From positions 124,001 to 188,000 of the forward strand of contig CANTFK010000333.1 in the NCBI GenBank assembly GCA_947646735.1: 64,000 bases of DNA, in the 5' to 3' direction. Source of the DNA: Peronospora farinosa. Taxonomy: Eukaryota; Oomycota; Peronosporomycetes; Peronosporales; Peronosporaceae. Below, piece after piece: positions 27,023 through 29,310 of the stretch. Within the stretch, counting starts at the first letter, position 1; every line of letters begins with the position of its first letter. Under the pieces are notes generated by a model that was not told the DNA's origin, did not search any database, and saw only the letters and a program-made list of their open reading frames with translations. The translations under genes and the position numbers were made by a program.

Positions 27023-28436
27023 AATGTGTCAGCGGGTGAAACCCTCGCCCCATTCGGCAGCGCCGCTGGCTAGTTTGCCTATTCCCACTGGGTGCTGGGA
27101 GTCCATTAGTATGGACTTTGTATTTGGCCTACCGAGAGATTCGCATGGCAATACAGGTATTGTGGTCTTTGTTGACCGTTTGAGCAAGATGGCTCACTTA
27201 GCGGCTGTGCCAGATTCGATCGATGGTGTGGGTACAGCGGAGCTGTTTATCGATCGGGTGTTTCGCCAACATGGCTTGCCAGTGGCAATTGTTTCTGATC
27301 GTGATCCTCGTTTTACGAGTAAATTTTGGAAGTCCGTCTTCCAGGTGCTGGGCACCCGTTTGGACATGTCCACGGCGGATCATCCGCAGACCGATGGTCA
27401 AACCGAACGCGTAAATCGCGTTGTTGAAGATATCCTACGCAGCGTTTGTGCTGAAACGCCTAAGCGTTGGAGCTCTATGCTCCCTGTAGTTGAGTTTGCA
27501 CTCAATAATTCCGTGCACGCCTCCACCGGCTACACTCCGTTCTATGTCAATGGTCTCACACACCCACGCGTTCCGTTAACGCTACCACCGAGTGGTTCAG
27601 GGCTTGGTGGGGGAGAGGTTGCCGATCGGCTTGCTGATGTCAGCCCTAATACTGTTAGGAAACAGGTAAATGCGTTTCTCGCAACGCGACTAAATGTCTT
27701 ACGACATGTGCAAGATGCAATGGCTGATAGTCAAGATAAACAAAAGGAATATGCAGATGCGAAAGGCAGAGGTTGTATTAATGATTATGAGGTCGGAGAC
27801 CAAGTATTACTTAATGCTAAAAACCTACCTACCAATGTAGTATCCGCTGTCTTTAAGACGAAGTTGCGTCCGCGCTTTATCGGACCCTTTAAGGCCATTT
27901 CCAAGAAAGGCACAGCGTATACGCTTAACTTGCCGCGCAAATTGCGTACACATCCTGTGTTCTATGTCGCCATGCTAAAACCTTATCGGGATCCGTCCCA
28001 AATAGACGCTAAGGCGCTCGCGCCGGGCCCATTGGCATTGTCGCGGGACGGAGCATCTGCACCAACAAGTCAAGTTGACCCTGCATTCGGGTCCGACTCT
28101 CTTCCAGGGACTCAAGCCGGGAGTTCATCGTCTGCCTCTCCTCACGAAGGATCCGCACCTCCTGAACAAGCTCGGCATGAGCTTGTTCCGATACACCGAC
28201 CTCCTCCTCCTTTGCTCGATGCGCAGGGGAACCTGCAGTTCCATGTGGAGCGTCTACTGCAGAAGCGTCGCCGCCATGGTCAAAACCAGTATCTGGTGAA
28301 ATGGCGGGGTTATCCCAAATCATGGAATTCATGGGAATTTGAGACTCCCCTTCGGCAGGATTGCCCGTACGCCGTGGACGTTTTTGAGCGTCGTGCGCAG
28401 GGTCTGTCTGTTGGCGCTGACGCTTCTCACCAGTAA
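27000..28436 (+). CDS. pol: pol continuation, A-family Gypsy: integrase core and chromodomain
   Basis: Continues pol after the one-base shift. The zinc domain ends CEMCQRVKPSP. The catalytic core shows the first Asp in SMDFVFGLP, the second in VSDRDPRFTS, and Glu in DGQTERVNRVVED, all present. GPY/F-type text follows (RPRFIGPFKAI), then HPVFYVAMLKPY at about 27954-27989. A low-complexity linker (~27990-28195) overlaps the antisense ORF. A chromodomain (QYLVKWRGYPKSWNSWEF) at about 28290-28345 probably targets integration to modified chromatin, as in other chromoviruses. The open frame extends upstream to 26898 but that part is out of phase with pol. Confidence 0.9.
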   Translation, partial: STYVRTCEMCQRVKPSPHSAAPLASLPIPTGCWESISMDFVFGLPRDSHGNTGIVVFVDRLSKMAHLAAVPDSIDGVGTAELFIDRVFRQHGLPVAIVSDRDPRFTSKFWKSVFQVLGTRLDMSTADHPQTDGQTERVNRVVEDILRSVCAETPKRWSSMLPVVEFALNNSVHASTGYTPFYVNGLTHPRVPLTLPPSGSGLGGGEVADRLADVSPNTVRKQVNAFLATRLNVLRHVQDAMADSQDKQKEYADAKGRGCINDYEVGDQVLLNAKNLPTNVVSAVFKTKLRPRFIGPFKAISKKGTAYTLNLPRKLRTHPVFYVAMLKPYRDPSQIDAKALAPGPLALSRDGASAPTSQVDPAFGSDSLPGTQAGSSSSASPHEGSAPPEQARHELVPIHRPPPPLLDAQGNLQFHVERLLQKRRRHGQNQYLVKWRGYPKSWNSWEFETPLRQDCPYAVDVFERRAQGLSVGADASHQ

Positions 28437-29310
28437 TGGTGGGCGTGGGCGGGTTAGCGGCCTCGGGCTGTCGTGAACTCGCGGCTACAGGGGTAGCCGA
28501 AACATTGGGCTGCTGGGCAGCAGGCGCATAATGCGTTCGTTGGGATTTCAATTTCCCCCGGGCCTTCAATTTAGCGTAATCATAACGCATCTTCCGCTCA
28601 AGTCGGATATCTGCCACATCGGCGCTTGCCCGTAGGGCCCACATGCTGCTTAAACGTCGCGCATAATGCGCCCAGCGGCTGAAAGCCGTGTCTTCTTCGT
28701 CCTCGGTTTCCCCCGCGAACAGAAGGATGGGAACACCCTTCATCGGAGGAACTGGCGCACCGCGCACTTGCCTATTAAGGCGTGCCAAGTATTGGCTTTG
28801 AGTAGTGATATGGGGCTCCAGATATCGTTGTCGAAGTGCCGTGCGTGTGGCAACATCCTCAGGTGAAATGGCCTCAGGCCCAATGGTCCAACCAGAAAGG
28901 GAATGCCCAGATGCTTCCTTTAGACGTTCTTCCACCGTAGGTGGCTTGAACCTGTACTGTCGGTGGTCCTGCAGCCGCGTCATGTTCTTCGTTCGGCGCT
29001 TGGCGCCTTCCTCTTGGTCGATGGACCGCTGTTGCTGCTCGTCGAGTGGATTGGTAACCGTTACCGTTGATGATACGTCAGGCGGGTCACGTAACGCTGT
29101 TAGCGCATCTGCTGCACCACGTTCAGGGAACGGATTCGGTGCATGACGAGTGTCATCTTCACCCGTGAGGGTGGCTAAAGGGGACCCATCGGGTCCCACA
29201 AAGACGGTGTCACTTTCGTAATCAACCGCTTCGTCAAGGTCGTCCTCAATGAGGTCCCTAAGAGTGTGTGACTCACTGCCGGGAGGCGTCATGTTGTGTG
29301 CCGTGAACAA
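28009..29310 (-). CDS. Antisense accessory ORF of A-family Gypsy, unknown function
   Basis: A 433-codon uninterrupted frame on the opposite strand. It starts 93 bp inside the 3' LTR and overlaps the last ~430 bp of pol (linker plus chromodomain) tail to tail. Visible parts: acidic N-terminus (IEDDLDEAVDYESD), a basic/aromatic middle (HYARRLSSMWALRAS, then KMRYDYAKLKARGKLKSQR), a nuclear-signal-like KRPRR patch, and a C-terminal coiled coil of about 50 residues (ELVQEVRILREER, then LESLEESRTRMQGQLD). I recognise no family. Its length without stops, ordinary composition and coiled coil argue for a real protein. Transcription would need a promoter reading leftward out of the 3' LTR. Related remnants sit at the same place in other copies. 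Confidence 0.6.
   Translation of the reverse strand: MFTAHNMTPPGSESHTLRDLIEDDLDEAVDYESDTVFVGPDGSPLATLTGEDDTRHAPNPFPERGAADALTALRDPPDVSSTVTVTNPLDEQQQRSIDQEEGAKRRTKNMTRLQDHRQYRFKPPTVEERLKEASGHSLSGWTIGPEAISPEDVATRTALRQRYLEPHITTQSQYLARLNRQVRGAPVPPMKGVPILLFAGETEDEEDTAFSRWAHYARRLSSMWALRASADVADIRLERKMRYDYAKLKARGKLKSQRTHYAPAAQQPNVSATPVAASSRQPEAANPPTPTITGEKRQRQQTDPAHDAQKRPRRTGNPAEGESQIPMNSMIWDNPAISPDTGFDHGGDASAVDAPHGTAGSPAHRAKEEEVGVSEQAHAELVQEVRILREERQTMNSRLESLEESRTRMQGQLDLLVQMLRPATMPMGPARAP

What the first reader, a model, noticed from the sequence alone, without database searches (positions are those of the whole stretch)
28009..29310. Intact 433-codon antisense ORF nested in a Gypsy retrotransposon
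The best-preserved Gypsy copy has an uninterrupted opposite-strand frame that starts 93 bp inside the 3' LTR and ends overlapping the chromodomain of pol. It has an acidic N-terminus, a basic central part, a KRPRR patch and a C-terminal coiled coil, and no family I know. Antisense ORFs are known in some plant Gypsy and retroviral systems; I know of none described for oomycete chromodomain elements. A role in regulating pol expression, RNA export or capsid assembly is speculative.
Basis: partly seen in the sequence, partly recalled or inferred. Interest (0 to 1): 0.88.

Follow-up and report, generated by a model that had tools for sequence, protein, structure and literature searches.

The report
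Antisense gene inside an oomycete retrotransposon
A jumping gene in a water-mould genome carries, backwards behind and partly inside its integrase gene, an extra protein gene that selection has kept about as carefully as the integrase, so it very likely does a real but still unknown job for the element.

Summary
The antisense frame is real and behaves as a gene. In 59 copies read from this genome (window plus 58), 33 are uninterrupted over 433 codons; the ATG at 29292 is kept in 54 of 59, the stop in 59 of 59. Outside pol, pN/pS is 0.26 (95% 0.20-0.34), against 0.28 for the element's integrase; the other five frames give 1.14-1.94, except one wobble-mirrored frame (0.35) that holds at least 6 stops in every copy. 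Amino-acid changes are rare among variants shared by copies and near neutral among private ones. In the overlap, constraint changes strand: the chromodomain is held on the pol strand, the neighbouring pol linker on the antisense strand, where it encodes a predicted coiled coil. A second chromodomain Gypsy family in this window also carries a selected antisense gene there, without detectable homology. Correction: the frame starts 94 bp outside the 3' LTR, not inside. No convincing relative in Pfam, PHROGs, NCBIfam or PDB sequences. Such genes are known in plants and two fungi; my paper searches showed none for oomycetes. Transcription, splicing and function are untested.

The parts
28009..29292 (-). 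Antisense gene, 427 aa from ATG (frame open from TTG at 29310)
28441..29292 (-). Part outside pol, codons 7-290, under purifying selection
   Evidence: pN/pS 0.261 (0.203-0.341), 59 copies
28060..28176 (-). Antisense codons 379-417: predicted coiled coil, constrained on the antisense strand, mirror of the pol linker
   Evidence: pN/pS 0.411 (0.240-0.690) in 59 copies; 0.418 (0.136-1.159) in 33; helix with pLDDT 86-94 over residues 371-410 of a single-sequence model
28179..28367 (+). Chromodomain core of pol, constrained on the pol strand; antisense frame unconstrained here
   Evidence: pol 0.137 (0.086-0.221); antisense codons 316-378 2.53 (1.45-4.91)
28233..28430 (-). Possible antisense intron, 198 nt, in phase (GTGAGA donor; TGCAG acceptor); unproven
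   Evidence: GT kept in 56 of 59, this AG in 59 of 59
29354..29369 (-). Candidate oomycete INR+FPR core promoter, 77 nt upstream of the ATG; weak
   Evidence: 2 mismatches in the window; 139 of 2000 shuffles do as well; copies: 16 with 1, 36 with 2, 6 with 3, 1 with 4 mismatches
23714..28436 (+). pol in two frames (23714-27022, 26898-28436): protease, RT, RNase H, integrase, SH3, chromodomain
22621..23627 (+). gag in two frames
   Evidence: Retrotrans_gag and Ty3_capsid, below the curated cut-offs
21926..22566 (+). 5' LTR (TG...CA; end read by eye)
29404..30041 (+). 3' LTR (TG...CA; end read by eye)
63130..64000 (-). C-terminal part of the antisense gene of the second chromodomain Gypsy family (broken copy; continues in L068)

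Best explanation
It is an accessory gene of the element, expressed from an antisense transcript that starts between the 3' LTR and the ATG, and it makes a coiled-coil protein that acts in trans on the element, most likely in the nucleus (transcription, RNA fate or integration). SHOWN by sequence comparison: a protein-coding antisense frame kept by purifying selection in the lineages that multiplied, with copies decaying after insertion just as integrase does; the coiled-coil end is held on the antisense strand where pol has only a linker. INFERRED: the promoter, dimerisation through the coiled coil, nuclear entry, possible splicing, and the regulatory role (by analogy with Grande gene23). I put the selected antisense gene itself at about 0.95; the figure below is for the whole statement and is kept down because the KRPRR patch shows no constraint.
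For: 33 of 59 copies uninterrupted, ATG kept in 54 of 59, stop in 59 of 59. pN/pS 0.261 outside pol against 0.278 for integrase. Omega 0.32 (MG), 0.40 (MGK), 0.43 (GY) on the 33 uninterrupted copies; MG with omega fixed at 1 is 42.9 log units worse. Shared variants N/S 0.337, private 0.853, p = 3.8e-7; integrase 0.286 and 0.775. Strand switch of constraint in the overlap. Basic stretches inside the constrained part (residues 91-120 net +4, 241-270 net +6). A second family with its own selected antisense gene at the same place.
Against: No RNA or protein evidence was available. The promoter motif is weak, and the second family shows only 3-mismatch matches 18-20 nt from its ATG. The KR-rich patch is not constrained in the antisense frame. 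With only the 33 uninterrupted copies the coiled-coil ratio is not distinguishable from 1 (0.136-1.159). In the second family the linker shows no clear strand switch. No domain of known function was found.
Confidence: 0.5

Rival explanations
1. A real selected antisense protein, but with a structural or replication role in the cytoplasm (Gag partner, chaperone or packaging factor) instead of a nuclear regulator.
For: The same selection data; a predicted coiled coil would suit an assembly role equally well; the KRPRR patch is not constrained.
Against: Nothing here tests it directly. The known plant case that was localised is nuclear (Grande gene23, passages of PMC7264820).
Confidence: 0.35
2. 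The antisense transcript acts as RNA (silencing or interference with pol RNA) and the protein frame is incidental.
For: Small RNAs of both strands map along Gypsy elements of Phytophthora infestans (PMC3522703, passages).
Against: It does not predict amino-acid-level constraint equal to integrase, nor purging of stops from shared variants (3 shared against 18 private in codons 7-290). Both roles can coexist.
Confidence: 0.05
3. The open frame is a by-product of constraint on some sense-strand frame, or of chance.
For: The sense frame whose wobble positions coincide with those of the antisense frame also shows low pN/pS (0.35).
Against: That frame holds 6-12 stops in each of 59 copies and its ratio is higher; the pol phase gives 1.94 outside pol; 0 of 3000 random sequences are open as long.
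Confidence: 0.02
4. The antisense mRNA is spliced, an intron removing the stretch opposite the chromodomain (a variant of the best explanation).
For: Antisense changes are not purged there; four stop-making variants of 22 weighted opportunities are shared in codons 301-372, against 3 of 124 in codons 1-290, p = 0.010; donor and in-phase acceptor are present.
Against: The counts are small and weighted, so the p value is only a guide; stops seen in two or more copies there lie at codons 324, 338 and 365, mostly in copies with further stops, and codon 365 lies outside the best candidate intron. A tolerant protein linker explains the missense pattern as well.
Confidence: 0.3

Closest known systems
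Antisense additional ORFs between pol and 3' LTR (aORF-3R) of plant Gypsy elements: Grande gene23, RIRE2, Retand, PvRetro13 (PMC7264820 and PMC11963269, passages seen)
   Same: Position between pol and 3' LTR, antisense orientation, presence in many copies, conservation like other retrotransposon proteins, no known function; Grande gene23 has its own upstream promoter and a nuclear product.
   Different: Oomycete host; no TRP28 domain; the gene runs deep into pol, and the strands share the constraint. No sequence comparison with the plant proteins was made apart from Pfam.
brtn of Boty elements in Botrytis cinerea (named in PMC7264820 and PMC8365987, passages seen; the original paper was not seen)
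   Same: Extra antisense gene in a Gypsy element of a microbial eukaryote.
   Different: Its sequence, overlap and selection were not compared here.
Chronos, chromodomain Gypsy elements of oomycetes (PMC5348765, passages seen)
   Same: Oomycete Gypsy element with a chromodomain at the end of pol.
   Different: Chronos has a second, archaeal-type RNase H; none was found here. The word antisense does not occur in that paper's main text.
HBZ of HTLV-1 (mentioned in PMC11963269; details of its domains recalled)
   Same: Antisense retroelement protein with an acidic N-terminus and a C-terminal coiled coil; works like it only by analogy.
   Different: No bZIP match; no basic region in front of the coiled coil (net -4 in residues 361-390); the gene starts outside the LTR.

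Membership tests
aORF-3R (antisense additional ORF of LTR retrotransposons) | lies between pol and 3' LTR, antisense to gag-pol | tested here: met
   it also extends 428 bases into pol
aORF-3R (antisense additional ORF of LTR retrotransposons) | present in most copies of the family with conservation like other element proteins | tested here: met
   101 match rows from 97 scored of 655 candidates; 0.261 against 0.278 for integrase; copies that lack the gene were not counted
aORF-3R (antisense additional ORF of LTR retrotransposons) | antisense transcription from its own promoter (as in Grande) | not testable with these tools
   only a weak INR+FPR-like motif
Retand-type antisense protein | TRP28 domain (PF04195) | tested here: not met
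   no Pfam family at E <= 1 for the window protein; the second family's protein matches only five weak models, none of them PF04195
Chronos | chromodomain after integrase | tested here: met
   PF00385, E 4.3e-12
Chronos | second (archaeal-type) RNase H | tested here: not met
   only PF17917 and PF17919 match as RNase H; about 100 residues lie between them (to 949) and the integrase zinc finger (from 1053), window copy only
Chronos | place in an RT tree with Chronos | not tested
   no Chronos sequences at hand
HBZ-type antisense bZIP protein | bZIP domain | tested here: not met
   no Pfam match; stretch at the start of the coiled coil is acidic
HBZ-type antisense bZIP protein | starts in the 3' LTR | tested here: not met
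   frame starts 94 bp outside the LTR; an untranslated or spliced leader in the LTR is not excluded

The most novel reading that the evidence does not exclude
Oomycete chromodomain Gypsy elements commonly carry an antisense regulator whose coiled-coil end is written in the mirror of pol's integrase-chromodomain linker, so that the two strands take turns: where one encodes a folded domain, the other encodes a tolerant linker or an intron. Two families with unrelated antisense proteins at the same spot would mean repeated recruitment, or one old gene that diverged beyond recognition.
Probability: 0.4. Interest if true: 0.78.

Novelty: new variant of a known kind. Interest (0 to 1): 0.66.

Why it matters
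Antisense genes in LTR retrotransposons are listed for plants and for Boty of two fungi, with no known function. This is a case in another kingdom-level group with measured protein-level selection about equal to that on integrase, and with a visible division of constraint between two opposite genes on the same DNA. Two families with many copies in one 47 Mb genome make it a tractable place to ask what such proteins do and how overlapping opposite genes share sequence.

Tried and rejected
Chance ORF: rejected. Selection on another frame outside pol: rejected. Start inside the LTR: rejected. Known domain: nothing convincing; window protein: Pfam 0 families at E <= 1, PHROGs 0, NCBIfam 0, PDB one chance-level hit at E 0.87; second family's protein: only weak, mostly coiled-coil hits. 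Relatives in viral contigs: none for either protein. Homology between the two families' antisense proteins: none by BLASTP or hhalign; the profiles are shallow, so remote homology is not excluded. KR patch as a selected nuclear signal: not supported. Strand switch in the second family's linker: not shown (antisense 0.73, pol 0.84 in 14 sequences); its chromodomain is held on the pol strand (0.44; antisense 1.01). The first run had 16 sequences; L084 and L087, 47% and 66% identical in that alignment, were then dropped; with them the linker values were 0.85 and 0.89. The fold model (mean pLDDT 52) was too poor for a fold search. A codon model with MGK and omega fixed at 1 failed; GY with omega 1 and kappa fixed at 3 was 30.0 log units worse than GY free, but kappa was fixed too.

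Papers: passages seen in PMC7264820, PMC11963269, PMC3599244, PMC8365987, PMC5348765, PMC12477816, PMC3522703; no paper was read whole. Searches aimed at an antisense ORF in oomycete elements: 0 papers; 9 listed; 12 listed of 18; 0 papers. None of the listed titles and abstract openings describes one; the library holds open-licence papers only.

Full report
WHAT IS THERE. The window lies in a 46.85 Mb oomycete genome (22 elicitin matches here, 0 of 14 control genomes). A Ty3/Gypsy element occupies 21926 to about 30041; its LTRs are 98.4% identical over 643 columns. Pfam finds protease, RT, RNase H, integrase, SH3 and chromodomain in the sense frames. This copy is broken: gag and pol are each split over two frames. 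On the other strand 28009-29310 is open for 433 codons; the ATG at 29292 gives 427 aa. The 3' LTR starts at 29404, so the frame is internal and does not start in the LTR.

IS IT A GENE. A protein search of the genome gave 101 match rows from 97 scored of 655 candidates, a lower bound. I read 59 copies: the window, the 49 other best-scoring places and 9 chosen as diverged; so the sample leans to good copies. 33 of 59 have no stop and no deletion; 32 of these are gapless and one (L051) has a 6-base in-frame insertion and no ATG at codon 7. The ATG is kept in 54 of 59 and the stop in 59 of 59. In codons 1-290, outside pol, pairwise pN/pS is 0.259; the other antisense frames give 1.44 and 1.49, the sense frames 1.14, 0.35 and 1.94; in the 9 diverged copies alone the values are 0.38 against 0.94 to 1.32, mirror frame 0.48. 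The mirror frame shares its wobble positions with the antisense frame and holds 6 to 12 stops in each of the 59 copies. By codon bootstrap, codons 7-290 give 0.261 (0.203-0.341) and the integrase of 50 copies 0.278 (0.207-0.369). On a tree of the 33 uninterrupted copies omega is 0.32 (MG), 0.40 (MGK) or 0.43 (GY); fixing omega at 1 in MG costs 42.9 log units.

WHEN DID SELECTION ACT. In codons 7-290, variants shared by two or more copies are 114 synonymous, 99 missense, 3 nonsense (N/S 0.337); variants private to one copy are 98, 215 and 18 (N/S 0.853; Fisher 3.8e-7). Integrase behaves alike, 0.286 and 0.775. So the protein mattered while lineages multiplied, and copies decay after landing. 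Of 50 copies, 33 have the antisense frame whole (433 codons), 31 the integrase stretch (316 codons), 23 both.

THE OVERLAP. Over the chromodomain core the pol frame gives 0.137 (0.086-0.221), the antisense frame 2.53 (1.45-4.91). Over the pol linker between SH3 and chromodomain it reverses: antisense codons 379-417 give 0.411 (0.240-0.690), the pol frame of 28011-28178, a slightly longer stretch, 1.37 (0.86-2.51) (59 copies). With the 33 uninterrupted copies the antisense value is 0.418 (0.136-1.159), so the switch rests on the full set. Those codons fall on the best-predicted part of the single-sequence model, a long helix (pLDDT 86-94 over residues 371-410). The KR-rich patch, codons 293-315, is not constrained in the antisense frame (2 synonymous and 12 missense shared variants). 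Stop-making variants opposite the chromodomain are not purged (4 shared of 22 weighted opportunities, against 3 of 124 in codons 1-290, p = 0.010); with a GTGAGA donor at 28430 and in-phase acceptors this allows an intron, but the numbers are small and come mostly from decayed copies.

EXPRESSION. An INR+FPR-like motif lies 77 nt upstream of the ATG (29369-29354): in 59 copies 16 have 1 mismatch, 36 have 2, 6 have 3 and 1 has 4 to the pattern defined for Phytophthora (PMC3599244, passages). 139 of 2000 shuffles do as well, and the second family shows no comparable motif. It is a lead only. No RNA data were available.

A SECOND FAMILY. The chromodomain Gypsy element at 59739-63857 belongs to another family, and behind its pol there is antisense coding too, broken in this copy. 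A search with one piece gave 155 matches from 150 scored of 394 candidates. In 7 of 7 copies fetched, all picked for long frames, the antisense frame is open for 610-657 codons from stop to stop. Its central part, almost all outside pol, has dN/dS 0 to 0.58 in 15 comparisons with L071, among them 0.19 at dS 1.1 (L081, 2 stops) and 0.29 at dS 0.63 (L083, 4 stops); non-mirror frames are mostly above 1 but go down to 0.32 in single pairs. Over the whole part outside pol the 7 young copies give only 0.51, or 0.56 with the window copy. The two families' antisense proteins show no detectable homology, and the linker switch was not shown for this family.

MECHANISM. Shown: a selected antisense protein. 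Inferred: own promoter, dimerisation, nuclear entry, action in trans on the element. The nearest precedent is Grande gene23, a nuclear product of an antisense gene with its own upstream promoter (PMC7264820, passages). It is not a TRP28 protein and not an HBZ-type bZIP protein, and the element lacks the second RNase H of Chronos (PMC5348765, passages).

NOVELTY. Antisense genes behind pol are a known kind in plants and in Boty of two fungi (PMC7264820). My paper searches showed none described for oomycetes; the library is partial. New here are the host group, two proteins without detectable homology at the same position, and the measured division of constraint between strands in the first family.

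Noticed in passing
59739-64000 and L068:1-1101: A second chromodomain Gypsy family with its own antisense gene behind pol, broken in this copy, open for 610-657 codons in 7 other copies picked for long frames.
   Followed up: partly
24226-24906: Six in-frame copies of an 87-base tandem repeat (29 aa) inside pol between protease and RT; the opposite strand is open there for 161 codons (24310-24795).
   Followed up: no
13748-14638 (-): A 296-codon frame that begins with a piece like the second family's antisense protein and then, by eye, runs into an RT-like piece.
   Followed up: no
34321-38063: A Copia-type gag-pol (by eye) in two long frames of 876 and 371 aa.
   Followed up: no
8034-9641 and L068:2413-2799 (-): The last 128 residues of a gene that looks like a phosphatidate cytidylyltransferase (by recall) reappear on the other strand about 2.3 kb beyond the window end, so this contig may hold an inverted duplication.
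   Followed up: no
20000-22225 and 29404-33411: The sequence around the element repeats at about 10.08 kb and 11.5 kb spacing; no matching target-site duplication was seen by eye at the LTR ends.
   Followed up: no
L052, L055 (contig C5): Two copies about 6.7 kb apart share the loss of the ATG and the stop at codon 393, which suggests local duplication of a broken copy.
   Followed up: no
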